From positions 13,648-53,425 of the forward strand of contig MGOK01000117.1 of NCBI GenBank assembly GCA_001795335.1: a stretch of 39,778 bases of DNA, in the 5' to 3' direction. Source of the stretch: Chloroflexi bacterium RBG_19FT_COMBO_55_16 (lineage in GTDB: Bacteria; Chloroflexota; Anaerolineae; Anaerolineales; UBA4823). The notes under the pieces were generated by a model, which saw only the letters and a program-made list of their open reading frames with translations, was not told the DNA's origin and did no database searches. This document shows positions 396-17,463 of this stretch, piece by piece (within the stretch, counting starts at the first letter, position 1; the number at the start of each line of letters is the position of its first letter). The position numbers and the translations under genes were made by a program.

Positions 396-2153
396 ATGTT
401 TCAAAGTATTCGCTGGCGGATAGCCATCCCGTACGTTATCCTTTTCATGCTGGTAATGACAGGGCTGAGTCTCTACATTTCGGATTTTATTTATCATACC
501 GAATTGAACGAACTGGAATCAAAACTAACTTCCGAAGCCAGGTTACTTGGAGGGACTCTCGAACAAAGAATAATCGGTGAATTCCCCAGTCATGGTCTTG
601 ATGTCCTTGCCAAAGAATGGTCGGATGACCTGGGAGTGCGTGTTACTCTCATTGCTGCGGATGGCGAGGTAGTCGGCGAATCTAATGAGGATCGGGCTAC
701 CATGGACAATCATCTCCAACGACCCGAAATTCAACAAGCACTTCTTGAAGGGATGGGCAGGTCTATCCGGTTTAGTCGGACTTTGGGAGCCGATATGTTA
801 TATATCGCCCTCCCAGTAGTTAAAGATGCAGAAGTATTGGGGTATGTCCGTCTTGCCATTGCGTTAGATCAAATCGAAGCCAAGGTTTCTTCTTTACGAA
901 AAACTATCCTCACTGGAACATTGATCGCAACCATCCTGGCAATCCTGTTGGGGGTAGTAGTTGCCGAATATACCACCCGACCCTTGCGGGATCTTGCCAA
1001 GACGACCCAGCATATTTCCCTGGATGCCCATAGTGACCAGCTGATCCCTACGACCGTCGACGAGGTAGGCCAGTTGGCGGGTGCGATTAATGCCATGCGG
1101 GTCCAGTTGCGCGCCCAATATGGACGCCTTGATACAGAACGTAAGAAGCTAGTTGCAGTTTTGAAGCAACTCAGCGACGGGGTGATGATTGTTGATGAGA
1201 TGGGGAAAGTACAGATGGTCAACCCAGCTGCCCAACGTATGTTTTCTGTAAAAGAAGGTGACGCCTTAGACCGCTCGCTTCCCAGCGTTGTCAGACATCA
1301 TCAAATTATTGATCTTCGGCGGAAATGTCTGGAATCCGGTGAAAACCAGGTGACTTCACTTGAAGTCCCCGGGAAACATCAAATATTCCAAGTGGAAGCC
1401 ATACCTTTGGTCCACACCTTACCCGGCAGCGTTCTCCTGGTAGTTAACGATCTCACACACCTGCGACGCCTGGAAACTGTCCGCCGCGATTTCATCAGCA
1501 ACATATCTCACGAATTACGTACTCCACTTGCCTCGCTTAAAGCCCTGGCGGAAACACTCCAGGAAAGCGCCTTGGACGACCCTCCTGCCGCACGTCGTTT
1601 CTTAAACCGGATAGAGGCCGAGGTGGATGCGTTGTCATTGATGGTACAGGAGTTATTAGAACTTTCTCGCATTGAATCGGGGAAGGTGCCGCTTGAATTA
1701 AAGCCCGTCCCTCCTCAGGATTTATTGACCTCAGCCATCGAGCGCCTGCAATTGCAATCTGAGAATTCTGGGATTCAAGTGCAGCTGCACTGTCCTGCCG
1801 ATCTACCTTTAGTGCTCGCTGATCCACCGCGGATCGAGCAGGTAGTCGTCAACCTATTACACAACGCCATCAAATTCACCCCGGCGGGCGGAAACATCAC
1901 TCTTAGTGCAGAAAGTTCCGAAGACATAATTCTTTTTTCTATCAAAGATACGGGGAGTGGAATCTCTGCTGAAGACCTGCCGCGGATTTTTGAACGCTTC
2001 TTTAAGGCAGATCGGGCGCGTTCTGGTGGTGGAACCGGGTTGGGACTGGCGATCTCCCGCCATTTGGTAGAAGCCCACGGCGGCCGAATCTGGGCAGAGA
2101 GCCTTGAGGGGCATGGCAGCACTTTTTATTTTACAATCCCTGTCGTGGCTTGA
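396..2153 (+). CDS. phoR: PhoR-type sensor histidine kinase
   Basis: This membrane histidine kinase of 585 residues senses a signal and phosphorylates the neighbouring regulator. It has one transmembrane segment near residues 8-29, an extracytoplasmic domain of about 140 residues, a second segment near 170-192, then HAMP, PAS, HisKA and HATPase_c. The phospho-acceptor is His372 in FISNISHELRTPLASLKA. ATP-site motifs are visible: N-box NLLHNAIKF, DTGSGI, FERFFKADRARSGGGTGLGL. I chose the ATG at 396, one base after the regulator's stop and preceded by GAAGGA, over an earlier in-frame ATG at 354 that lies inside the regulator gene. The pst operon 190 bases downstream supports a phosphate-starvation role. 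Confidence 0.93.
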   Translation: MFQSIRWRIAIPYVILFMLVMTGLSLYISDFIYHTELNELESKLTSEARLLGGTLEQRIIGEFPSHGLDVLAKEWSDDLGVRVTLIAADGEVVGESNEDRATMDNHLQRPEIQQALLEGMGRSIRFSRTLGADMLYIALPVVKDAEVLGYVRLAIALDQIEAKVSSLRKTILTGTLIATILAILLGVVVAEYTTRPLRDLAKTTQHISLDAHSDQLIPTTVDEVGQLAGAINAMRVQLRAQYGRLDTERKKLVAVLKQLSDGVMIVDEMGKVQMVNPAAQRMFSVKEGDALDRSLPSVVRHHQIIDLRRKCLESGENQVTSLEVPGKHQIFQVEAIPLVHTLPGSVLLVVNDLTHLRRLETVRRDFISNISHELRTPLASLKALAETLQESALDDPPAARRFLNRIEAEVDALSLMVQELLELSRIESGKVPLELKPVPPQDLLTSAIERLQLQSENSGIQVQLHCPADLPLVLADPPRIEQVVVNLLHNAIKFTPAGGNITLSAESSEDIILFSIKDTGSGISAEDLPRIFERFFKADRARSGGGTGLGLAISRHLVEAHGGRIWAESLEGHGSTFYFTIPVVA

Positions 2154-2235
2154 TCCAACTGGGTCCCCTATTTGCAATTTGGTATTGTGGTTGGAATACT
2201 AAAAACAGCGATATAACGTGAAGATTCGATGGCTG

Positions 2236-2296
2236 TTAATCAACTCTTAACAAAACCTTGACCAGTATTTAACCGCAATTTCCTTTGCTGTTAAAC
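2236..2296 (+). promoter_or_regulatory. Array of PhoP/PhoB-type direct repeats upstream of pstS
   Basis: Hexamers TTAATC (2236), TTAACA (2247), TTGACC (2258) and TTAACC (2269) are spaced exactly 11 bp apart. A fifth, TTAAAC (2291), stays in the same phase after one skipped position. This matches the direct-repeat layout known for PhoP boxes of Gram-positive bacteria (TTAACA-like hexamers, one helical turn apart). A possible extended -10, TG-T-TATTCT, ends at 2311, 35 bases before the pstS ATG. The regulator encoded at the start of the window is the likely ligand; that pairing is inference. Confidence 0.75.
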
Positions 2297-2346
2297 CCAT
2301 CGTGTTATTCTTCTCTCCAAGATTAGAATATTAGGAGATTGAAGAT

Positions 2347-3369
2347 ATGACACGCAAATCGTACGCTTGGCTATCTACCTTGATCTTGATAGCCATTTCG
2401 CTCACCGCTTGTGGGAGCCCGGCAACCCAATCGCCCTCGCAAGAGCCTCAAACATCCCAAGCACCTGTTCAAACAGAAGAGCCGGTAAATAACACCGGAA
2501 CAAGCCTTCTACCGGAGGTAGATCCTGCAAGCGTCAGTGGAAACATCATCACAGCTGGCAGCTCGACTGTTTTTCCGCTCTCTGAACGCATGACTGAACG
2601 CTTCCAGGAGGAAGGTTTTGCTGGAGAAATCACTATAGACAGTATCGGTACCGGCGCTGGCTTCGAACGTTTCTGCGTCAATGCCGAGACAGACATCGCC
2701 AATGCGAGCCGCCCTATTAAAGACGAAGAGCGCGCTAGTTGCCAGTCTAACGATCGCGAGCCTGTAGAATTTCGCGTTGGCACCGATGCCTTAGCGATTG
2801 TGGTTAGCAACGAGAACAGCTTTGTTGAAAATCTTACTCTCGAACAACTTGCTCTGGTATTCTCCACCGCTAAGACTTGGGCCGATATTGACCCAAGTTT
2901 CCCTGCTGAACCCATCCAACGCTTTAGCCCCGGAACTGACTCCGGCACCTTCGACTTCTTCGTCGAAGTAGTCTTGGAAAAAGACGAAGCTCCTATCCTG
3001 AACGCTCAAAACCTCCAACTCAGCGAAGACGATAATGTCCTTGTCCAGGGGGTGGAAGGCAGCCCTTACGCAATTGGATATTTCGGTTTTGCTTACTATC
3101 AAGAAAACGCTGACCGGCTCAAGACACTTTCTATCGAAGGCGTATCTCCGAGCGCCGAAACCGCAGAGTCTGGAGAATATCCCCTGTCTCGGCCCCTTTT
3201 CATCTACTCCGATGCCACGATTATGAAACAGAAACCCCAAGTAGCAGCTTTTATCGACTTCTATTTGACCTACGTCAATGAAGAAGTCCTTGATGTCGGC
3301 TACTTCCCCGCCAGTGAAGATGCAATGAATGTTGCAATGCAAAGCTGGCTGGATGCTGTCGGTGAGTAA
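2347..3369 (+). CDS. pstS: Phosphate-binding lipoprotein of the Pst ABC transporter
   Basis: This is the extracellular phosphate receptor that delivers phosphate to the PstC/PstA channel. Residues 1-21 are a lipoprotein signal peptide ending in the lipobox LTAC, so Cys22 should be lipidated. A Ser/Gln/Pro/Thr-rich spacer to about residue 55 tethers the binding domain. Ligand-loop motifs are visible: AGSSTVFPLSERM, DSIGTGAGFERFC, NASRPIKDEE and SPGTDSGTFDFF. The length (340 residues) is normal. The ATG is preceded by TTAGGAGA. It is the first gene of pstSCAB, follows the Pho-type repeats, and is separated from pstC by a stem-loop. Lipid anchoring fits a cell without a conventional periplasm. 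Confidence 0.96.
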   Translation: MTRKSYAWLSTLILIAISLTACGSPATQSPSQEPQTSQAPVQTEEPVNNTGTSLLPEVDPASVSGNIITAGSSTVFPLSERMTERFQEEGFAGEITIDSIGTGAGFERFCVNAETDIANASRPIKDEERASCQSNDREPVEFRVGTDALAIVVSNENSFVENLTLEQLALVFSTAKTWADIDPSFPAEPIQRFSPGTDSGTFDFFVEVVLEKDEAPILNAQNLQLSEDDNVLVQGVEGSPYAIGYFGFAYYQENADRLKTLSIEGVSPSAETAESGEYPLSRPLFIYSDATIMKQKPQVAAFIDFYLTYVNEEVLDVGYFPASEDAMNVAMQSWLDAVGE

Positions 3370-3403
3370 CGCCAGCTAGAACTAAATAAATATTTATGCT
3401 CGA

Positions 3404-7726: not shown

Positions 7727-7825
7727 TTAGAATGTTAACCGCCCGGATTCGTAGCTTTGGCCGGTTTCACTTGGAGGCATTCACATTTGTTTAGCCATTT
7801 TGCGCATCAAGGAAGTGAGGATAAA

Positions 7826-9769
7826 ATGTCTCAAACAAGAATCGCCCCTTATGGCTCCTGGAAATCTCCCATCACCTCTGATCTGATTGTCTCTGAAACT
7901 ATAGGCTTGGGAGCTATCTCCCCAGATGGGGTAGACATCTATTGGATCGAAGTGCGGTTAAAAGAAGGTGGCCGCTATGTCGTTGTTCGGCGTACACCAG
8001 ACGGCAAAGCGACTGATATAACACCTCCGCCGTTCAATGTTCGCACTCGAGTTCACGAATATGGTGGTGCTGCTTATAAAGTACTTGATGGCGTCGTTTT
8101 TTTCGCGAATTTTGACGATCAACGCATATATCGCCAAGATCCTGGACAAGATCCGGGACCTATTACTCCCGAAGGCGAGTACCGCTATGCGGATCTCATC
8201 TTGGACCACCGTAGAAACCGGTTAATCTGTGTCCGAGAGGACCATACCCGTAGCGATCAAGAGGCGGTTAACACATTAGTGAGTGTCGATCTCAAACCGG
8301 GAAATATTTCTCAAAATACAGGACAGGTTCTCGTCTCCGGCAATGACTTTTACGCGTTCCCGCGCCTCAATCCTGGCGGCACTCAATTAGCTTGGACTAC
8401 CTGGAATCACCCCAATATGCCCTGGGATGGTACTGAACTTTGGGTTGCAGATCTCGTTAAGAATGGTCTCGTGTCGAATGCTCGGCTGGTCACCGGCGGA
8501 ATAGAAGAATCGATCTTTCAGCCTTCCTGGTCACCGAATGGAGTTTTACATTTTATCTCTGACCGTTCCGGCTGGTGGAACTTGTATTGCTGGCGAGATG
8601 GGAAAATCGAGCCTATTTATCCAATGGAGGCTGAATTTGGAATGCCACAATGGGTATTTGGGATGTCCTCTTATGAATTCGCCTCGGCGGAGCGCCTCGT
8701 CTGCACATATATCCAACAAGGCACCTCATCCCTCGCTATCCTTGATCTTAAGAATAAGAAATTAACCACCATCGATGGTCCCTTTACAGACATTTGGGGG
8801 CTGCGGGTCGTTGGGGATCAGGCAATATTCAACGCTGGATCTCCAACCGAATCAGCTGCTATCATCAATCTCGACTTGACCACCGGATTCCCAGAAGTCC
8901 TCCGCCGCTCCAGCGAGATGGTGATCGATCCGGCTTTTCTCTCTTATCCCCAAACTATTGAATTTCCCACGGAAAACGGCTTAACAGCCTTTGCATTTTT
9001 CTTTCCTCCAAAAAATCCGGATTTTTCTCCACCAACCGATGAACTACCTCCTTTGTTGGTGATGAGCCACGGCGGTCCAACCGGAGCGACTTCCACAGTA
9101 CTCAGCTCAGAAATTCAATACTGGACCAGCCGTGGCATCGCTGTGCTCGACGTAAACTATGGCGGCAGCACTGGCTATGGGCGGAAATACCGGGAACGTC
9201 TCAACGGACACTGGGGACTTGTTGACATGGACGATTGCGCGAACGGGGCACGTTTCCTCGTCAAGCAAGGGATTGTCGACGGCAACCGATTAGCTATTAC
9301 TGGAGGGAGCGCGGGCGGTTACACTACGTTGTGTGCACTGACATTTCGTGACTTGTTCAAAGCAGGGGCTAGCCATTTTGGCATTGGCGATCTTGAATCC
9401 TTTGTCAAAGATACTCACAAATTCGAGTCGCGTTACCTGGACCGTCTGGTGGGACCCTTTCCCGAACGCCGGGATCTATATCGGGAACGCTCGCCAATCC
9501 AACACATTGACCAGCTCTCGACACCTATGATCCTGTTCCAGGGTCTTGAAGACAAGATCGTCCCACCTAACCAGGCGGAAATGATGTTTTCTGCAGTGCG
9601 AGCCAAGGGATTGCCGGTCGCTTACCTGCCCTTTGAGGGCGAGCAACATGGTTTCCGCAAAGCTGAGAACATCAAGCGCGCCCTGGACGCTGAGTTGTAT
9701 TTCTACTCTCGTATCTTTGGCTTCGAGTTAGCCGATCCCGTCGAACCAGTGCACATCGAAAATTTGTAA
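7826..9769 (+). CDS. S9-family prolyl oligopeptidase / acylaminoacyl-type peptidase
   Basis: This is a serine peptidase of the alpha/beta-hydrolase fold, 647 residues, which probably cleaves short peptides in the cytoplasm. No signal peptide or membrane segment is visible. The N-terminal two thirds form a beta-propeller (repeats such as ISPDGVDIYWIE and QPSWSPNGVLHFISDRSGW). The catalytic domain starts near residue 380. The nucleophile is Ser495 in TGGSAGGYTTL, with Asp576 in LEDKIVPP and His608 in GEQHGFRKAENI. The HGGPT oxyanion motif is also present. I chose the ATG at 7826, preceded by GTGAGGATAAA, over an in-frame start at 7757 without such a site. It stands alone, between arsC and a strong terminator. 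Confidence 0.92.
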   Translation: MSQTRIAPYGSWKSPITSDLIVSETIGLGAISPDGVDIYWIEVRLKEGGRYVVVRRTPDGKATDITPPPFNVRTRVHEYGGAAYKVLDGVVFFANFDDQRIYRQDPGQDPGPITPEGEYRYADLILDHRRNRLICVREDHTRSDQEAVNTLVSVDLKPGNISQNTGQVLVSGNDFYAFPRLNPGGTQLAWTTWNHPNMPWDGTELWVADLVKNGLVSNARLVTGGIEESIFQPSWSPNGVLHFISDRSGWWNLYCWRDGKIEPIYPMEAEFGMPQWVFGMSSYEFASAERLVCTYIQQGTSSLAILDLKNKKLTTIDGPFTDIWGLRVVGDQAIFNAGSPTESAAIINLDLTTGFPEVLRRSSEMVIDPAFLSYPQTIEFPTENGLTAFAFFFPPKNPDFSPPTDELPPLLVMSHGGPTGATSTVLSSEIQYWTSRGIAVLDVNYGGSTGYGRKYRERLNGHWGLVDMDDCANGARFLVKQGIVDGNRLAITGGSAGGYTTLCALTFRDLFKAGASHFGIGDLESFVKDTHKFESRYLDRLVGPFPERRDLYRERSPIQHIDQLSTPMILFQGLEDKIVPPNQAEMMFSAVRAKGLPVAYLPFEGEQHGFRKAENIKRALDAELYFYSRIFGFELADPVEPVHIENL

Positions 9770-9879: not shown

Positions 9880-9902
9880 AATCTGAGAAAATGGAGGCTT
9901 CT

Positions 9903-10271
9903 ATGAATGCTGTCAAGATCATTTCCTATATCGCCGCTGCCATATTCATTTTCTTTGGGGTAATGTTCATCTACGCCACCTTTAGCCCGCAAGGACAAAT
10001 CGGTTGGTTGGTTGTTGGCCTAGTGAGCGTTGTGATCGGCTTCGGGTTGATTTGGTTCGCCAGCACCCGAAAACCCATCGCGGCAGGTTCTGGCGAGGAT
10101 GTCACCTTAAAAATTGACCTCCCAGCCAATGTTGAATTAGACACCTTGAAATGTAATTCCTGTGGGGGGGTGTTAAAACCAGAAAACATCAAGATGGTGG
10201 CCGGCGCCCCAGTTGTTACCTGCCCATATTGTGGCACCACCTACCAGCTGACCGAAGAACCTAAATGGTGA
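9903..10271 (+). CDS. Small membrane protein with C-terminal zinc ribbon, unknown function
   Basis: I do not recognise a named family. The 122 residues have two hydrophobic segments (about 6-27 and 33-52) and a cytoplasm-sized tail carrying two CxxC knuckles: CNSCGG (Cys84, Cys87) and CPYCGTTY (Cys107, Cys110). Together these make a zinc-ribbon or rubredoxin-like knot. I chose the ATG at 9903 because GGAGG lies five bases upstream; an ATG at 9891 is part of that site. It sits 92 bases before the large membrane protein with the Cys-Ala tail and reads the same way. It may be a membrane-bound partner or metal carrier for that system, which is only inference. Confidence 0.8.
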   Translation: MNAVKIISYIAAAIFIFFGVMFIYATFSPQGQIGWLVVGLVSVVIGFGLIWFASTRKPIAAGSGEDVTLKIDLPANVELDTLKCNSCGGVLKPENIKMVAGAPVVTCPYCGTTYQLTEEPKW

Positions 10272-10363: not shown

Positions 10364-12061
10364 ATGAGCGGCAAATCACATCATCCATCTAAAATCAATA
10401 GACTTAAATATCTTCTCGCCTTCGTCGCCTTATTGTTCTTGACCCCTGGGATTGCCCTGGCGCAGACCTACTCCTTCAGCCTGCCACAAGAGACTGTCAA
10501 TGTTTATTGGAACGAGGATGGTACTAGTTCGATCGATTATCTCTTCATCTTCACTAACGATTCCTTCGCCTCACCCATCGACTACGTTGACGTCGGTGTG
10601 CCGAATAAGAACTACGACCTGAACAGCGTTGTCGCTGACGTAGAGGGTCAGGTCATCAATGACATCGAAGAGTCCCCATACGTCGATCCAGGGATTGCAG
10701 TTGGGCTTGGAAGCAACGCCATCCAACCTGGTAAGACTGGCCAGGTGCATGTCAATATCGGCCGGGTAGAGCGAGTCCTCTATCCTGACGATACAGATGA
10801 TACCTATGCAAGCGGAGAGTTTATCCCTACCTGGTTCGATTCATCTTTTGTCCATGGCAATACAAACCTGACCGTTATTTTTCATCTTCCACCCGGTGTC
10901 CAACCAGAGCAACCGCGCTGGCATACTGCACCCTCCGGGTGGCCATCAGAACCGGTGGCTGGCATTGACGATCAAAATCGCATCACATACACATGGCATA
11001 ATCCAAACGCTGTTGGCTATGCGCAATATACCTTCGGCGCTTCCTTTCCTGCACAATATGTGCCTAAGAATGCCATTGTCCGCCCCAACCCGTTCGCAGG
11101 GTTGATCGCTGCGCTCAGTACTCTCGCCATTCCTCTCCTGTGCATCGGTATGGTTGTATTCTTCATTTACTGGGCTGTCACGGCTGACCGCAAACGCAAG
11201 ATGAAGTATCTCCCCCCCAAGATTTCCATCGAGGGACACGGGATAAAACGCGGCCTGACCGCTGTTGAGGCTGGCATACTAATGGAACAGCCGATGGATA
11301 AGATTTTGACCATGATCTTGTTTTCAGTGCTCAAGAAGAACGCCGCACAGGTTAAAACACGCGATCCATTAGAATTAGAACTAATCGAGCCGTTACCCGA
11401 GGGTCTAAACGCCTACGAGAAAGATTTTCTGGCGGGATTCTCGGCGTCACAGGGTGCCCCTCGGCGGAAAGCCTTGCAAAAAACCATGGTAGATCTGGTT
11501 AAGAGCGTTGGGGACAAGATGAAAGGCTTTAGCCGCCGCGAAACGGTTGCCTATTATCGCGATATCACCGCACGTGCCTGGACCCAGGTCGAAGCCGCGG
11601 ATACTCCCGAAGTTAAGAGCGAGAAGTTCGACGAAGTCATGGAATGGACCATGCTCGACCATGAGTACGAAGACCGCACGAAAGAAGTCTTCCGCCAGGG
11701 TCCAGTGTTTGTGCCAATGTGGTGGCCGCGCTACGATCCAAGTTACGGACGCTCGGGTCCAGGTCCAATTGGGCTTCCCACGACCGGCAGAGCTCCTGGG
11801 GGAAGCCCTGGCCCATCGCTCCCCCATCTCCCTGGGGCTGAATTTGCTGCATCGATGGCTACCGGCGTGCAAAACTTTTCTAGTAAGGTCGTTGGAAACA
11901 TCACTGAATTCACCAGTGGGATTACAAATATCACGAACCCACCCCCCAAGCCTACTTCAAGTGGCAGGTCTTTTGGTGGAGGAGGTAGTGGTGGGCACAG
12001 CTGCGCTTGTGCTTGCGCCTGCGCTGGTTGCGCCTGTGCTTGCGCTGGAGGCGGTCGGTGA
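10364..12061 (+). CDS. Membrane protein with extracellular DUF2207-like domain and Cys-Ala repeat C-terminus
   Basis: The 565 residues begin with a signal peptide (cleavage plausible after ALA33). An extracellular beta-rich domain follows to about residue 240, resembling DUF2207-type ectodomains; that match is from memory. A transmembrane segment spans about 245-272, then comes a basic stop-transfer RKRKMKY and a cytoplasmic region of about 290 residues. The tail is Gly-rich, with seven Cys alternating with Ala (Cys547, 549, 551, 553, 556, 558, 560), ending GGGR. Synonymous codons vary (TGC/TGT, GCT/GCC), so selection acts on the peptide. I chose the ATG at 10364, preceded by ACGGAG. Its stop overlaps the GTG of the radical SAM gene. 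It is a likely substrate of that enzyme, or else a metal-binding protein. Confidence 0.85.
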   Translation: MSGKSHHPSKINRLKYLLAFVALLFLTPGIALAQTYSFSLPQETVNVYWNEDGTSSIDYLFIFTNDSFASPIDYVDVGVPNKNYDLNSVVADVEGQVINDIEESPYVDPGIAVGLGSNAIQPGKTGQVHVNIGRVERVLYPDDTDDTYASGEFIPTWFDSSFVHGNTNLTVIFHLPPGVQPEQPRWHTAPSGWPSEPVAGIDDQNRITYTWHNPNAVGYAQYTFGASFPAQYVPKNAIVRPNPFAGLIAALSTLAIPLLCIGMVVFFIYWAVTADRKRKMKYLPPKISIEGHGIKRGLTAVEAGILMEQPMDKILTMILFSVLKKNAAQVKTRDPLELELIEPLPEGLNAYEKDFLAGFSASQGAPRRKALQKTMVDLVKSVGDKMKGFSRRETVAYYRDITARAWTQVEAADTPEVKSEKFDEVMEWTMLDHEYEDRTKEVFRQGPVFVPMWWPRYDPSYGRSGPGPIGLPTTGRAPGGSPGPSLPHLPGAEFAASMATGVQNFSSKVVGNITEFTSGITNITNPPPKPTSSGRSFGGGGSGGHSCACACACAGCACACAGGGR

Positions 12062-13407
12062 AAAATCCGAAACCAGGACTATATCACTTCGAACGCCAGA
12101 GCCAGGGTGAGCGCAGTCGCATTCACTTGCGTATCGATCATGATCAGAGTGGGAGGCCAGCACACGGAACCTTGTTGATAAACGCCAGTCGAGTGCTACA
12201 CTTAAATCCTACTGCATCGGTGATGGCTTACCTTTCTCTCACCGATACGCCCGTGCCAGCAGCAATCCGTGACTTGACTCACCTTTTTCGCGTCTCACAA
12301 GTCCAAGTGAAGTCTGACTATGCGCAATTCGTCGAGGATTTAGACCAGCTCACCCTCCCCGATGGTACTTGCCCGGTCTGCGATCTGGATATTGAATTTA
12401 CTGCCCCTTTCACCGCTCGCCCCTCTGCTCCGTACCGCATGGACCTGGCCCTGACCTACCGGTGCAACGACAACTGCGCTCATTGTTATAATGCTCGGCC
12501 ACGTGATTATCCCGAACTGGGGATAGAAAAATGGAAAGCCATCCTTGATCGCCTGTGGGAGATCGGCATTCCTCATATTGTCTTCACCGGTGGCGAGCCA
12601 ACTTTACGCTCCGACTTACCTGAGCTAATTGCCCATGCAGAAAAGAATGGCCAGATTACCGGACTGAACACCAATGCCCGCCGTTTAACCGATGCGAGTT
12701 TCGTAAAGCAGCTGGTCGATGCTGGCCTGGATCACGTGCAGATCACCGTCGAATCCCACGACCCGCTCATTCACGACGCTATGGTGTGCGCCAAAGGTGC
12801 CTGGACGCAGACTATCGCCGGATTGCGCAATGTGCTTGATACACCCCTCTACGTGATGACAAACACTACCATGTTGCGCCAGAATAGCCCCTTCCTGGGT
12901 AAAACCCTGGATTTCCTGGCAAGTTTAGGGGTGCCTACCATAGGCCTGAATGCCCTGATCCATTCTGGTCACGGCCTGACGGTGGGTACAGGACTTACTG
13001 AAAGTGAGTTACGGCCTCTGCTGAACCTCGCCCGAGACAAGTCTGACCAAAACGGGCAACGTCTGATCTGGTACACTCCCACTCAATATTGCCATTTCGA
13101 CCCGATGCAGCTCGAATTGGGTGTCAAAGGTTGCACAGCCGCCCTGTACAATATGTGCGTGGAACCTGATGGTGGGGTGATCCCCTGCCAATCTTATTAT
13201 CGGCAGCTGGGTAACCTGCTCACTGACTCCTGGCACGCTATCTGGAACCACGAGCTGGCCATTTCATTACGCGAGCGGCGGTATATCCCATCGAAATGTA
13301 ATGACTGCGTATTGCTCACCGAATGTGGCGGTGGCTGCCCCCTTGCTCTGAACGCCCCCGGAAATAGCCTGATTTCCCGCGACAACCTCCCCCTCTCCGA
13401 CAAATGA
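12058..13407 (+). CDS. Radical SAM/SPASM protein with N-terminal PqqD-like (RRE) domain
   Basis: The 449 residues fall into three parts. Residues about 40-100 resemble the PqqD-type peptide-recognition fold (RVLHLNPTASVMAYL, then an FVEDLDQL helix). The radical SAM core has CNDNCAHC (Cys136, 140, 143) for the SAM-binding 4Fe-4S cluster and FTGGEPTLR (GGE at 178-180). The C-terminal SPASM region has Cys359, 367, 377, 414, 417, 423 and 427, enough for auxiliary clusters. The GTG start at 12058 overlaps the upstream stop (GTGA) and has GGAGG six bases before it. Extending to the ATG at 12007 would add residues encoded out of frame within the Cys-Ala tail. It probably modifies that tail. Cys105 and Cys108 form an extra CxxC before the core. 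Confidence 0.9.
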   Translation: MKNPKPGLYHFERQSQGERSRIHLRIDHDQSGRPAHGTLLINASRVLHLNPTASVMAYLSLTDTPVPAAIRDLTHLFRVSQVQVKSDYAQFVEDLDQLTLPDGTCPVCDLDIEFTAPFTARPSAPYRMDLALTYRCNDNCAHCYNARPRDYPELGIEKWKAILDRLWEIGIPHIVFTGGEPTLRSDLPELIAHAEKNGQITGLNTNARRLTDASFVKQLVDAGLDHVQITVESHDPLIHDAMVCAKGAWTQTIAGLRNVLDTPLYVMTNTTMLRQNSPFLGKTLDFLASLGVPTIGLNALIHSGHGLTVGTGLTESELRPLLNLARDKSDQNGQRLIWYTPTQYCHFDPMQLELGVKGCTAALYNMCVEPDGGVIPCQSYYRQLGNLLTDSWHAIWNHELAISLRERRYIPSKCNDCVLLTECGGGCPLALNAPGNSLISRDNLPLSDK

Positions 13408-13497
13408 CTACTAGTCACTGACTGCAAGTTACTGAACACTGCATCCTGGATACTGGAAGATAAATACTCAATTCCCTCCCCCTATCGAGGTACCCCC

Positions 13498-14655
13498 ATG
13501 ACTACTATTCGCGAGTCTATCCGTCGCCTCTTCGCTCCTGTCGAACCTCTTCCAGCCGGTATTTACCATTATCAGGCACCGCCCGAAGAACCCGATCACT
13601 TTCGCCTGCACTTACGGATGGAACTAGATGGGACTGGAGTGTTGATCGTTAATGCGTCAACGGTCCTTCACTTGAACACCACTGCCGCCGAGTATGCTTA
13701 CCACCTCGTTCGTTGCACTTCTCGTGAAGAAGTAGCTCGTTCCATGTCCGTTCGCTATCACGTCACTCAAGCTCAGATCCTACAAGATTTTACCGAGTTC
13801 AAAGACCGGATCGACACCTTAATCTCAACCCCCGATCTGGATCCAGTAGCCTACCTGGACTTCGAGCGACAAAAGCCTCACACAGGCCCAATCTCTGCTC
13901 CATACCGGCTCGATTGCGCGTTAACCTATCGGCTGCCGGATTCTACTGACCCCACTTTTGCGCCGACAGCTCGAGCAGCGCGCGAGCTTGCAACCCTTGA
14001 ATGGGAATCAATAATGGATAAAGCCTGGCAAGCCGGTATACCACATATTGTCTTTACCGGCGGTGAACCCACCCTGCGCGACGACTTGCCGAAATTGATT
14101 TCCCACGCTGAAACCAATGGACAGGTAACCGGGCTGCTGACGGATGGCTATCGCTTGGCAAACTCAGCTTATCTGGATAGCCTGCTCCAGACAGGTCTAG
14201 ACCACTTGGTCATCCTGCTTAACCCCGTCGAGGATAGGATCTGGGCGGTAACCCAATCTGCGTTGCAGGCCGACCTTTCCACTACTGTCCACCTGACGAT
14301 CACTTCTCAAAACTACCCTGTAGTGCTGGATTATCTCACGCGCCTGTCCGCGATGGGTCTAGGATCGATCTCTTTGAGCGCCACCGACCCAGAGTTAAAA
14401 GAGCAACTTCGAAATGCCCGTGAGATAGCAGCTGAACTCCACCTCTCCTTGGTATGGGACTTGCCGGTACCCTATTCCGCCCTGAATCCGTTCTCTTTGG
14501 AATTCGCGGATCACGAGCGATCGGTCGGTACTGGTCGCTCCTGGTTGTACGTCGAACCCGATGGTGACGTACTGCCGGGTCAGGGGATTAACCAGGTACT
14601 CGGAAACTTTCTAACCGATCCCTGGGATAAAATATGGAAGCCTGAGCTAGGGTAA
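13498..14655 (+). CDS. Degenerate radical SAM paralogue (pseudo-rSAM) with PqqD-like domain
   Basis: This 385-residue protein is a clear paralogue of the preceding radical SAM enzyme. It shares VNASTVLHLNTTAAEYAY, SAPYRLDCALTYR, IPHIVFTGGEPTLR and YVEPDGDVLP. The three cluster cysteines are replaced (aligned positions Leu146, Thr150, Thr153), and the SPASM cysteines are replaced or lost. The protein stops at WKPELG, just before the last SPASM cysteine group. Only two cysteines remain (73 and 140). The frame is otherwise intact and the GGE motif is kept, so it looks like a maintained non-catalytic partner rather than random decay. It probably binds the substrate through its PqqD-like domain. 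The ATG follows GAGGTACCCCC; the gap to the previous gene is 90 bases. Confidence 0.85.
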   Translation: MTTIRESIRRLFAPVEPLPAGIYHYQAPPEEPDHFRLHLRMELDGTGVLIVNASTVLHLNTTAAEYAYHLVRCTSREEVARSMSVRYHVTQAQILQDFTEFKDRIDTLISTPDLDPVAYLDFERQKPHTGPISAPYRLDCALTYRLPDSTDPTFAPTARAARELATLEWESIMDKAWQAGIPHIVFTGGEPTLRDDLPKLISHAETNGQVTGLLTDGYRLANSAYLDSLLQTGLDHLVILLNPVEDRIWAVTQSALQADLSTTVHLTITSQNYPVVLDYLTRLSAMGLGSISLSATDPELKEQLRNAREIAAELHLSLVWDLPVPYSALNPFSLEFADHERSVGTGRSWLYVEPDGDVLPGQGINQVLGNFLTDPWDKIWKPELG

Positions 14656-14665
14656 TACCAGAAGG

Positions 14666-16180
14666 TTATGGTACCTCTCCGGCAAACACTTGTCTAAATA
14701 CTTGGATTTTCCCCTTTTGCTCGGCTACTAACCACATGCGCCCAAGACCGTCTTGGGAGATCGCTTGGATTTTCAAATCCTCCACCATCTCGAGTGTTTT
14801 TCCCTCAATCCTATACAGGGTACCCTCACTATAGAGCCAGGCATCACCGTCTGCATCGAAGAATACACTATCCGCATAATAATCACCAACCTCACCGATT
14901 TGACTCCATACCCCGTCCTTAATATTGTAACGTACCTGGAAACCGCCGCAGCTCGCTCCTCCACAGATCGATAAAGACGCCCAGATTTCCCCATCTGGCC
15001 CAATAGCGATATCATCGATCCATCCATATCGGATCCCTATCGGCGGCTTAGGTGGGGTAAAACTAGCCCAATTCCCGGTTCCCCCATCGTGACGCCAGAG
15101 GACTCCATCGACTCCTAGCCACGCATTTCCGCCTGCGTCCACAACAATATCGCGCACACATCCCTGATCGACGGGTGAGCCAGCACCATGCCAAGTATCC
15201 CCATCAAACCAGCGCGCGCCCTGCCCAACAATAGCTTCACCCTGGGTATCACAATCGCCTACCCACATGTTACCGCTTTGATCCAGGGAGATAACCGGTA
15301 ACGCGAATCCCTCATACTGCGCCGTTTCTGGAGATTGCACAAAACCCATTTCTTCAAATCGGTACACCTGCCAGCTCTGTCCATTAAAAGCTCGCACATC
15401 TTGAAAGGTAGTCATCCAAACTCTTCGATATAGATCGGTTAAGACGTCCTTCCCGATCCGTGTTTCATAAGGCGCGTTGATCGGCAGCCAGCCTTGGTCT
15501 GCTCCATATGTCTTCCATGTGCTGCCATCCCAGGCCATCACTAGCGTACCATCTCCCCTGACTATCCATAACCGTTGATCCACATCGAATCCCGCTAGCA
15601 AGTATTTACCATCTGTAAAGTGTACCGTCCACTCAGTAGCGTCCAGGCTGGCGATACCCGAATCGCTTGCCAGCCACAAGGTCCCATCGAGCCCTGGACG
15701 TAATTCTTGGATCCTCCCCAGGACTTTGTCAACGGTAACAACGGCCTTGAACCTATCCACCAGCGCTTTCATTTCAGTTGGATTGGGTGAAGGGCTGGCC
15801 GTGAAGGTGGGTGTATGAGTTGGGGTTGGGTTAACCGCCTGGGCAGTTCTCGCATGCTGGATGGCTTGCGTAGCTGTCAGGGCTGCGCTCAAGGTGTTTC
15901 TCAACTGTAAATTCGCCTGGGCAACGGCAGTTATAGTTGAAATAATAACCGGTGTCCCCGTCTCGCTCGGTTCAGGCTTGGATGGCGTTATGGATTGAAT
16001 CGGTACGATTGTGACCGGTTCGGTCAAGGATCTTGTCACCGCGGTGGCTGTACCCTCCTCCAAAATTTGAACGGTAGGGGTCAATCTTGCCATTAGATTG
16101 CAGGCTAACATGAGTCCTGTCGATGTCAGGCCAATCAGGATTCGAACAGGCTGTGTTGGATGCACACGTCGCTTCGCCAT
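14666..16180 (-). CDS. Lipoprotein with ligand-binding-style beta-propeller repeats
   Basis: This 504-residue exported protein has a lipobox, LMLAC, with Cys27. A long Thr/Pro/Ser-rich linker runs to about residue 140 (for example THTPTFTASPSPNPTE). After it come propeller blades of the type found in two-component sensor ectodomains (Reg_prop-like): GLDGTLWLASDSGIASL, QSGNMWVGDCD, DAGGNAWLGVDGVLWRH and GPDGEIWASLS. I see no catalytic motif; it may bind a ligand or partner at the cell surface. The ATG at 16180 is preceded by AGGAGGGT, so the ATG 21 bases upstream is not preferred. The gene converges on the pseudo-rSAM gene with a gap of ten bases and has its own promoter. Confidence 0.85.
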   Translation of the reverse strand: MAKRRVHPTQPVRILIGLTSTGLMLACNLMARLTPTVQILEEGTATAVTRSLTEPVTIVPIQSITPSKPEPSETGTPVIISTITAVAQANLQLRNTLSAALTATQAIQHARTAQAVNPTPTHTPTFTASPSPNPTEMKALVDRFKAVVTVDKVLGRIQELRPGLDGTLWLASDSGIASLDATEWTVHFTDGKYLLAGFDVDQRLWIVRGDGTLVMAWDGSTWKTYGADQGWLPINAPYETRIGKDVLTDLYRRVWMTTFQDVRAFNGQSWQVYRFEEMGFVQSPETAQYEGFALPVISLDQSGNMWVGDCDTQGEAIVGQGARWFDGDTWHGAGSPVDQGCVRDIVVDAGGNAWLGVDGVLWRHDGGTGNWASFTPPKPPIGIRYGWIDDIAIGPDGEIWASLSICGGASCGGFQVRYNIKDGVWSQIGEVGDYYADSVFFDADGDAWLYSEGTLYRIEGKTLEMVEDLKIQAISQDGLGRMWLVAEQKGKIQVFRQVFAGEVP

Positions 16181-16245
16181 GCCGCTACCCTCCTGCTCCA
16201 AAGTTGACTAAATCATGCAGTCATCCAATCTATTTATTAATTCCG

Positions 16246-16334: not shown

Positions 16335-17105
16335 ATGACATTTTCCCCCTCTGAATGGCACGATCGTTTCACCCTACAAGCGCGGTGGACACGCGATCTA
16401 CGCCGGTACTTATTTCAAAAGGCAGGCTTTCAAACTGCTAGCCATATATTAGATGTCGGCTGTGGTACAGGAGTATTGATTTCCGAATTGTCCGATCTGG
16501 CTAACGTCCAGGTTCACGGATTAGACATTAATCGCCAATATTTGAATATTACTGTGCGGCAATCCTCGGTTGCCTGCCTGACCCAGGCAGACGCCCACAC
16601 ACTCCCGTATATATCTAGTATTTTCGATATAAGTTTTTGCCACTTCCTTCTGCTCTGGGTCGTGGACCCTGCCAAGGTAGTCGCCGAGATGGCACGCGTG
16701 ACTAAACCAGGTGGGGCAGTGCTCGCTCTTGCCGAGCCCGACTATGGCGGGCGCATCGACTATCCCCCTGAACTTGCTCAGATCGGCCAATGGCAGCAAG
16801 CCGCCTTGCGAAGCCAGGCAGCCGATCCAGAGATGGGGCGTAAGTTGGCAGGAATATTCTCCTGTCTTGGATTGAAACAGGTTGAGACTGGGGTGCTCGG
16901 CGGCCAATGGAATACTCCCCTTTCACCAGATGATTGGGAATCCGAGTGGTCCGTGATCCATTCCGACTTGCATCAGATCGCGCAGACTCCTGGTGTCTTC
17001 AACACCTTCAATGCTTTAAGAAATATTGACTTGTCCGCCCGGGAAAAAGGGGAACGCGTCCTATATGTACCCACATTTTACGCCTGGGGGATAGTTCCTG
17101 AATAA
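16335..17105 (+). CDS. Class I SAM-dependent methyltransferase
   Basis: This 256-residue cytoplasmic protein has the Rossmann-like methyltransferase fold. Motif I is ILDVGCGTGVLISEL, the acidic strand-2 residue is in VHGLDINRQYL, DAHTLPYISSIFDISFCHFLLLWV covers motifs II and III, and EMARVTKPGGAVLALAEPDYGG is the usual post-III helix. This is the UbiE/Methyltransf_11 type. The substrate cannot be read from the sequence. It has its own promoter and is convergent with the Rieske gene (gap of seven bases), so there is no operon partner to suggest a pathway. Confidence 0.88.
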   Translation: MTFSPSEWHDRFTLQARWTRDLRRYLFQKAGFQTASHILDVGCGTGVLISELSDLANVQVHGLDINRQYLNITVRQSSVACLTQADAHTLPYISSIFDISFCHFLLLWVVDPAKVVAEMARVTKPGGAVLALAEPDYGGRIDYPPELAQIGQWQQAALRSQAADPEMGRKLAGIFSCLGLKQVETGVLGGQWNTPLSPDDWESEWSVIHSDLHQIAQTPGVFNTFNALRNIDLSAREKGERVLYVPTFYAWGIVPE

Positions 17106-17112
17106 CCAAACT

Positions 17113-17463
17113 TCATTTCTCAGCCGGAATCCCGACTTCGATCTGCCCATCCACGACCCGCACTGGGTAGGATGGGATATCGACGAAAGCAGGTAAAGAT
17201 AGCACTTTCCCCGTTCGTATATCGTAGCGCGCTCCATGCCGGGGACAGACCACCGAGTATTGCTCTAGATCGCCTTCGCCAATCGGGCCATCGTCGTGCG
17301 AACACAAATTGCCAATGGCAAAATATCGCCCGGCTATATTAAACACCACAATAGGCAAGTCATCGATTTCTACAAAGACCCGTTCCCCATTCGGCAACTC
17401 ATTTACTTGGGCGACAGGGACAAATTCGCACTCGTCGGGGTTAATCTGTTTATAGGCTTGCAT
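17113..17463 (-). CDS. Rieske-type 2Fe-2S ferredoxin
   Basis: This small soluble Rieske protein of 116 residues carries one 2Fe-2S cluster on the pattern C-x-H...C-x2-H, seen here as NLCSHDDGPIGEG and VVCPRHGARYDIRTG. It would carry electrons for an oxygenase, reductase or other redox partner. No oxygenase alpha subunit or reductase lies nearby, so its partner is unknown. It resembles the small Rieske proteins (NirD/CarAc type) often found near suf genes; here the suf operon begins about 2 kb away, beyond the glycosyltransferase-like gene. The ATG is weakly supported by AGGGAAATTCCCA. Confidence 0.9.
   Translation of the reverse strand: MQAYKQINPDECEFVPVAQVNELPNGERVFVEIDDLPIVVFNIAGRYFAIGNLCSHDDGPIGEGDLEQYSVVCPRHGARYDIRTGKVLSLPAFVDIPSYPVRVVDGQIEVGIPAEK

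What the first reader, a model, noticed from the sequence alone, without database searches (positions are those of the whole stretch)
10364..14655. Candidate peptide-tail modification system: Cys-Ala-tailed membrane protein, RRE-radical SAM/SPASM enzyme and a catalytically dead paralogue
Seen: a membrane protein ends in seven Cys alternating with Ala plus GGGR. The next gene overlaps its stop (GTGA) and encodes a radical SAM/SPASM protein with a PqqD-like N-terminus. A third gene is a cluster-less paralogue of the second. Known: PqqD-like domains bind substrate peptides, and SPASM enzymes install crosslinks or other changes in peptides. Inference: the tail is the substrate and stays attached to a membrane protein, instead of being released as a small peptide. 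The tail is on the cytoplasmic side of the single membrane segment, where the enzyme could reach it. I cannot exclude that the family has already been catalogued by genome mining.
Basis: partly seen in the sequence, partly recalled or inferred. Interest (0 to 1): 0.85.

Follow-up and report, generated by a model that had tools for sequence, protein, structure and literature searches.

The report
Membrane protein with enzyme-modified cysteine tail
Bacteria of the order Anaerolineales carry a membrane protein that ends in an almost unchanging Cys-Ala tail and keep it together with a radical enzyme of the kind that cross-links peptides, so the tail is very probably a built-in, chemically modified peptide that stays on its protein; the chemistry itself is not yet shown.

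Summary
The window holds five genes: a small zinc-ribbon membrane protein, a DUF2207-like membrane protein (M) ending CACACACAGCACACAGGGR, an RRE-type radical SAM/SPASM enzyme (RS), a cluster-less RS paralogue (PS) and a methyltransferase (MT). In related loci with enough flank, M is present in 60 of 60, the zinc-ribbon gene in 53 of 53, PS in 54 of 56 and MT in 45 of 49. In 201 sampled genomes of one order, RS and M occur together in 128, one alone in 6, neither in 67. The best 120 of 4,693 homologues all end in the tail, and 81 tail DNAs are all different, so selection acts on the protein. In a diverged group RS and M lie apart in 7 of 24 genomes (4 clearly unlinked), yet both are kept. A distant relative pairs a CHSAC-repeat tail with its own RRE-RS. 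Best reading: the tail is the core of a RiPP-like modification made on, and kept by, a membrane protein; thioether bridges are likeliest. No modification has been measured. My searches found no earlier description.

The parts
9891..10271 (+). Zinc-ribbon membrane protein (126 aa; two hydrophobic stretches by reading, then CxxC...CxxC)
   Evidence: Present in 53 of 53 related loci with enough upstream sequence; CxxC..CxxC kept in 106 of 106 distinct family members
10364..12061 (+). M: DUF2207-like single-pass membrane protein that carries the Cys-Ala tail
   Evidence: remote kinship to DUF2207 through a homologue that passes the Pfam cut-off
11087..11191 (+). hydrophobic stretch holding the membrane segment of M (residues 242-276), followed by KRK
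   Evidence: Kyte-Doolittle scan; helix 245-282 in the model
11816..11953 (+). leader-like conserved segment of M (residues 485-530)
   Evidence: 15 of 46 columns invariant in 48 sequences, between segments with 0 of 24 and 1 of 16; helices predicted there are of low confidence
11954..12001 (+). variable Gly/Ser linker (residues 531-546)
   Evidence: 1 of 16 columns invariant
12002..12058 (+). core tail CACACACAGCACACAGGGR (residues 547-565)
   Evidence: 19 of 19 columns invariant in 48 sequences; 81 of 81 tail DNAs distinct
12058..13407 (+). RS: radical SAM/SPASM enzyme with PqqD-like (RRE) N-terminus
   Evidence: 123 of 123 distinct relatives keep CxxxCxxC, 122 of 123 the SPASM motif searched for
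12058..12351 (+). RRE-like N-terminal domain of RS (residues 1-98)
   Evidence: Model; PqqD over the cut-off in two distant relatives and listed for several close ones
12463..12486 (+). CNDNCAHC, the CxxxCxxC cluster motif of RS
13132..13338 (+). SPASM cysteines of RS (C359 to C427)
   Evidence: Invariant columns; PF13186
13498..14655 (+). PS: cluster-less paralogue of RS that keeps the RRE-like N-terminus (PqqD 15.6 bits, below the cut-off)
   Evidence: both motifs absent in 101 of 102 distinct relatives
16335..17105 (+). MT: class I SAM-dependent methyltransferase of the module (here parted from PS by an unrelated reverse-strand gene, 14666-16201)
   Evidence: 45 of 49 loci with enough downstream sequence; within 3.6 kb of RS in 14 of 16 rearranged loci, next to it in 11

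Best explanation
The C-terminal tail of M is the core peptide of a RiPP-like modification that is made on, and most likely kept on, a membrane protein. RS is thought to bind the cytoplasmic C-terminal region of M (probably the conserved segment 485-530) through its RRE-like domain and to act on the Cys-Ala core by radical chemistry. The likeliest product is a set of S-to-C-alpha thioether bridges from Cys to Ala across the central Gly; that step is inferred from the closest structures (SkfB, SuiB) and from the known tolerance of such enzymes for Ala as acceptor. PS, which has lost its clusters, is probably a substrate-holding partner of RS. MT probably adds a methyl group to the tail or its end, and the zinc-ribbon protein probably helps at the membrane; both roles are guesses. 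The near-invariant core and its wide occurrence in one order point to a housekeeping, cofactor-like structure rather than a diversifying antibiotic. Shown: the genes, the tail, its conservation, the co-occurrence, the cluster loss in PS. Inferred: binding, chemistry, retention, function.
For: Co-occurrence: 128 both / 3 RS only / 3 M only / 67 neither of 201; all 21 M-bearing genomes of 301 also have RS-family genes. Tail hit in 23 of 25 genomes chosen as carriers of the family, one hit each except a second very weak one in G273. Tail-only query in 301 genomes: 21 hits, 20 of them RS genomes, the other weak and with a stop inside. Protein-level constraint: 81 distinct DNAs, all six Arg codons used. 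Leader-linker-core layout. A distant system pairs a DUF2207-like protein with a CHSAC-repeat tail with its own RRE-RS. The best Foldseek matches of RS are the RiPP maturases SkfB and SuiB. RumMC2, AlbA and SkfB tolerate Ala substitution in the substrate (PMC8188230, passages); [quoted passage not shown]
Against: No modification has been observed. A Cys-rich tail could bind a metal without modification. The searches were seeded with tail-bearing proteins, though tail-less pieces were also picked up. MT and the zinc-ribbon protein have no assigned role. The tail tolerates small length changes; PS is missing in 2 of 56 loci and MT in 4 of 49. G100 has PS without M or RS in what was found, and G426 has RS without M. 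Sampled genomes are related, so the co-occurrence is not 201 independent trials.
Confidence: 0.65

Rival explanations
1. The tail is an unmodified metal or iron-sulphur binding hairpin (seven thiols on one face), and RS modifies another molecule or loads a cofactor onto the tail.
For: Alternating Cys-Ala would put all thiols on one face of a strand (inference); the zinc-ribbon protein is a constant neighbour; SufC-, NifU- and SufS-like genes lie nearby in 11-17 of 80 loci (my reading of the sequences).
Against: RS has the RRE-like domain typical of peptide-binding maturases and its nearest folds are peptide maturases. Tail length varies from (CA)3-G-(CA)3 to (CA)5-G-(CA)3, odd for one fixed metal site. 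The CHSAC-tail system keeps an RRE-RS with a different core.
Confidence: 0.2
2. M is an ordinary RiPP precursor with an outsized leader: the modified tail is cut off and released as a small peptide.
For: Leader-like segment, Gly-rich linker and core layout; Gly-rich stretches before a core can be protease sites (recalled). A peptidase-like gene (7757-9769, Dpp5-like by a sub-cut-off match) lies upstream in this window, and a signal-peptidase-like gene lies downstream in 18 of 80 loci (my reading).
Against: Neither peptidase-like gene is shared by most loci, and no exporter is among the families shared by most of 80 loci (my reading); the tail lies on the cytoplasmic side; the core is nearly invariant, unlike most released antimicrobial peptides (recalled).
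Confidence: 0.12
3. RS and M are merely old neighbours; RS acts on a small molecule together with MT, and the tail has its own unrelated function.
For: The wider neighbourhood is partly conserved by descent, for example phosphate-uptake-regulator-like genes upstream (my reading); the nearest named families of MT are mostly small-molecule methyltransferases; MT stays with RS, not with M, in the diverged group.
Against: Both genes are kept after they are separated (7 of 24 genomes, 4 of them clearly); transcription units were reshuffled but the same genes were kept; a second tail type has its own RRE-RS.
Confidence: 0.08

Closest known systems
Sactipeptide and streptide maturases with an RRE (SkfB, SuiB, CteB)
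   Same: RRE-like N-terminus, radical SAM core, SPASM-type cysteines; SkfB and SuiB are the top Foldseek matches of the RS model, SkfB the top sequence match among solved structures
   Different: Their substrates are small free precursor peptides (recalled); here the candidate substrate is the tail of a 565-residue membrane protein, and identity in the Foldseek alignments to SkfB and SuiB is only 17-20%
TrnC-TrnD of thuricin CD (PMC12093266)
   Same: Two related radical SAM proteins act as a complex, and only the activity of one is strictly essential (passages)
   Different: TrnD is still an active radical SAM enzyme; PS has lost the cluster motifs
Anaerobic sulfatase-maturating enzymes (anSME)
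   Different: They read a short internal motif and make formylglycine (recalled); no RRE, tail or dead partner
DUF2207 membrane proteins (for example SMU.243 of Streptococcus mutans, PMC10457818)
   Same: Large outer N-terminus, membrane segments, inner C-terminus with a Gly/Ser-rich stretch (passages)
   Different: No paper in the library held both DUF2207 and radical SAM; a Cys-Ala tail was not mentioned in the passages seen
TIGR04222 'near_uncomplex' membrane proteins
   Same: The region around the membrane segment and inner domain of the CHSAC-tail relatives matches weakly (22.8 and 16.2 bits, cut-off 43)
   Different: Below the cut-off; M of the window has no match
DVU_1556-type methyltransferases
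   Same: Nearest named family of MT (65.1 bits, cut-off 155)
   Different: Far below the cut-off; MT is not a member

Membership tests
RRE-dependent RiPP pathway | RRE (PqqD-like) domain in or beside the modifying enzyme | tested here: met
   PqqD 38.0 and 30.9 bits (cut-off 23.4) in the two distant RS relatives, listed for several close homologues; 17.2 bits, below the cut-off, in the window protein; fold in model
RRE-dependent RiPP pathway | Short ribosomal precursor with leader and core | tested here: inconclusive
   Leader-like segment and core exist but on a 565-residue membrane protein
RRE-dependent RiPP pathway | Core is post-translationally modified | not testable with these tools
   Needs mass spectrometry
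RRE-dependent RiPP pathway | Leader removal and export genes | tested here: inconclusive
   None recognised among families shared by most of 80 loci; a signal-peptidase-like gene lies near in 18 of 80 (my reading); genes elsewhere in the genomes were not searched
Radical SAM/SPASM enzymes | CxxxCxxC plus SPASM cysteines | tested here: met
   Pfam over both cut-offs; 123 of 123 and 122 of 123 distinct relatives
Sactipeptide maturases | Forms Cys S to C-alpha bridges | not testable with these tools
   Only fold similarity to SkfB
PqqE equivalogs (TIGR02109) | Score over the curated cut-off of 381.35 bits | tested here: not met
   116.6 bits
DUF2207 (PF09972) | Score over the gathering cut-off of 24.4 bits | tested here: inconclusive
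   No match for window M nor for one CHSAC-tail homologue; the other CHSAC-tail homologue 25.5 bits; M and these align along the inner domain
TIGR04222 membrane proteins | Score over the curated cut-off of 43 bits | tested here: not met
   No match for window M; 22.8 and 16.2 bits in the CHSAC relatives

The most novel reading that the evidence does not exclude
An order of bacteria carries a fixed, housekeeping peptide-derived structure, a cross-linked and perhaps methylated poly-Cys hairpin, built by an RRE-radical SAM enzyme and a cluster-less partner onto the cytoplasmic end of a membrane protein, where it works as a permanent redox, metal or sensing cofactor: a RiPP that is never released.
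Probability: 0.4. Interest if true: 0.92.

Novelty: new variant of a known kind. Interest (0 to 1): 0.8.

Why it matters
RRE-dependent radical SAM enzymes are known from small secreted or cofactor-yielding peptides (recalled). A conserved one whose only evident substrate is the tail of a membrane protein would extend RiPP-type chemistry to a permanent part of a membrane protein, give a first role to a branch of the DUF2207-like proteins, and show how a dead radical SAM paralogue is kept as a partner. The core is nearly the same across much of an order, and three named isolates carry it (Bellilinea caldifistulae L023, Thermanaerothrix daxensis L072, Ornatilinea apprima L080), so the question is directly testable by mass spectrometry.

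Tried and rejected
Chance low-complexity tail: rejected, because tail codons differ (mean 9.6 of 17) while the residues do not (the tails there were chosen by a protein-level pattern, so the identity of residues rests, which used the best-scoring homologues).

Known catalogue entry: M has no Pfam or NCBIfam match; RS scores far below each NCBIfam cut-off shown (best 25 of 78); the defence library gave only weak viperin and methyltransferase similarity. Literature: brought up no paper that describes this system in its title or abstract as listed; only open-licence papers are held. Most hits were seen only as search listings; passages were read, no whole paper. One search shows that peptide-modifying radical SAM genes exist in conflict systems, with other partners.

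Solved structure for M: no sequence match better than E 0.067. Foldseek matches are mostly ribophorin I (OST) and M1 aminopeptidases, with whole-model TM-scores of 0.13-0.26 in the 50 rows shown, so nothing is claimed on function. The model of M is unreliable from residue 424 on, so leader helices and tail shape are not used as evidence.

Search by the CHSAC-type M gave only 20 proteins; by my reading, 7 reach into a CHSAC-type tail (three long forms to the end, one short form, three cut or unclear) and 13 do not.

Counts and dropped rows: two genomes (G100, G332) with matches only at the pseudo-enzyme level were not counted as having RS. Exceptions: G336, G340, G356 and G429 meet contig ends, G332 lies on a 4-kb contig, G426 is unexplained. 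In one search, 131 distinct M C-termini gave 117 with a tail and 14 without; those 14 are cut by contig ends, masked bases or frameshifts except L058, an extra ectodomain-only copy. The script gave PS in 52 of 56; L022 and L045 were missed because their frames were called from an upstream start, and both have PS, so 54. One search counted copies from partly overlapping loci (112 of 113, 177 of 177); one search counts distinct proteins (101 of 102, 123 of 123). The one PS with a cysteine motif (L199) shows it at residue 4 of a frame that starts too early, inside the tail region of M.
Full report
What is there. The window encodes, on the plus strand, a 126-residue zinc-ribbon membrane protein (9891-10271), M (10364-12061), RS (12058-13407), PS (13498-14655) and, after an unrelated reverse-strand gene (14666-16201), a class I methyltransferase MT (16335-17105). 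M has one N-terminal signal-like segment, one further hydrophobic stretch at residues 242-276 followed by KRK, and ends CACACACAGCACACAGGGR. The start of RS overlaps the stop of M as GTGA.

The tail is under strong selection. The best 120 of 4,693 homologues, query included, end in (CA)4-G-(CA)3-GGGR (87), the same with a fifth dipeptide (32), or that form with one Ala replaced by Val (1). In an alignment of 48 of them the 19 core columns are all invariant, while the linker before it has 1 of 16 and the segment 461-484 has 0 of 24; the segment 485-530, which looks like a leader, has 15 of 46. In 80 loci plus the window, 81 tails found by pattern have 81 different DNA sequences, a mean of 9.6 of 17 codons differing between pairs, and all six Arg codons. 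Over all loci fetched by then, 117 of 131 distinct M C-termini carry a tail: (CA)4-G-(CA)3 80, (CA)5-G-(CA)3 19, (CA)3-G-(CA)3 13, (CA)3-G-(CA)4 3, and one each of (CA)4-G-(CA)2-GGGGGR and (CA)4-G-(CA)3-GGGSGR; the other 14 are broken or cut, except one ectodomain-only copy. The (CA)3-G-(CA)4 form occurs where the body of M is much diverged, 281-353 bits, so the tail outlasts the body.

The genes go together. The 80 loci, whose titles all name Chloroflexota by my reading, have the zinc-ribbon gene in 53 of 53, M in 60 of 60, PS in 54 of 56 and MT in 45 of 49 cases with enough flanking sequence (with two PS misses mended). In 301 sampled genomes of the phylum, RS-family matches occur in 22 and M in 21, all 21 within the 22; the extra one, G100, has only a PS. 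A tail-only query on the 301 found 21 genomes, 20 of them with RS, the other a weak hit with a stop inside. Of 25 genomes chosen because they carry the family, 23 gave a tail hit; one of these (G273) had a second, very weak hit, and G140 (CHSAC tail) and G100 had none. In 201 sampled genomes of the order of G001, 131 have RS at E below 1e-100, 131 have M, 128 both, 67 neither. I take that order to be Anaerolineales, because G002 (Thermanaerothrix daxensis, order Anaerolineales) is in the sample. The genomes are related, so the Fisher value is not a fair probability.

Rearrangement shows that this is more than old synteny. In a diverged group of 26 genomes (best RS scores 397-472 bits), 24 have M. 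In 17 the two are within a few kilobases and in 7 they are apart: G323 126 kb apart on one contig; G342, G362 and G432 on different contigs and by their lengths at least about 28 kb apart; G461, G466 and G471 on short contigs, where linkage cannot be excluded. In 16 RS loci of this group that I examined, a soluble relative of the inner domain of M lies within 0.6 kb of RS in all 16, and MT within 3.6 kb in 14, next to RS in 11; M, where present, sits with PS, and with the zinc-ribbon gene where the stretch reaches that far. In a deeper branch the order is zinc-ribbon, RS, partner, M, with MT after M in the two stretches that show it (L195, L197); there the partner lacks CxxxCxxC, but four of five copies keep a SPASM-type cysteine motif, the fifth being cut. 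A tree of 71 RS proteins puts nine of the eleven (CA)3-G-(CA)3 members in one clade with support 0.997. In G342 the M gene is split, its core is shortened to (CA)3-GGGR and RS lacks the SPASM motif searched for, which would fit joint decay of the pair.

A second tail type. In G015 and G140 a DUF2207-like protein with repeats of the CHSAC kind is followed by an RS relative (31-34% identical to the window enzyme) with a PqqD domain over the Pfam cut-off, then a coiled-coil-like gene. One of these two membrane proteins passes the DUF2207 cut-off (25.5 against 24.4 bits), and their inner domains align with that of M. So the same layout, membrane protein, Cys-rich tail and RRE-radical SAM enzyme, exists with a different core.

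Mechanism and function. The simplest reading is that RS grips M near residues 485-530 through its RRE-like domain and modifies the core. Thioether bridges to Ala are favoured because related enzymes tolerate Ala at the bridge site (PMC8188230, passages) and because the two Cys-Ala runs around a Gly could form a hairpin (inference). PS is read as a holding subunit by analogy with TrnD (PMC12093266, passages). The core is nearly constant across the order sampled, unlike antibiotic cores (recalled), which suggests a constitutive role such as redox, metal or sensing chemistry at the membrane. None of this is measured.

Novelty. No Pfam, NCBIfam or defence model covers M, and RS and MT fall far below each NCBIfam cut-off shown. 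Ten paper searches brought up no description; the library is open-licence only, so a description elsewhere is possible. I file it as a new variant of RRE-dependent radical SAM modification, with the substrate placement and the dead partner as the new features.

Noticed in passing
L134 (G204), 673-3375 reverse strand: A 900-residue frame that joins a serine/threonine kinase-like N-terminus, an outer domain like that of M and a C-terminal part that looks like a formylglycine-generating-enzyme domain (my reading of the sequence).
   Followed up: no
L161 3874-4875 (-), L171 6611-7507 (+) and others: A soluble relative of the inner domain of M, without tail, lies beside RS in all 16 examined loci of the diverged group.
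   Followed up: partly
L174, L194, L195, L175: RS of diverged branches has its own C-terminal Gly/Cys-rich stretch (for example GGGCAGCSGSCGTRS), perhaps a further cluster or self-modification site.
   Followed up: no
L022: Two tail proteins in tandem (758 and 589 aa as called) beside one RS; a longer M class of about 770 aa also appears in the homologue list.
   Followed up: no
L198 (G342): The M gene is split into two overlapping pieces in different frames, and the second piece ends in a shortened core SCACACAGGGR; listed as separate pieces only.
   Followed up: no
window 17113-17463 (-): A Rieske-type ferredoxin; similar small Rieske genes and SUF/NifU-like genes lie near the module in 11-17 of 80 loci (my reading).
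   Followed up: no
window 14666-16201 (-): A reverse-strand gene, probably a lipoprotein with repeats by my reading and without an NCBIfam match over a cut-off, lies between PS and MT in this genome.
   Followed up: no
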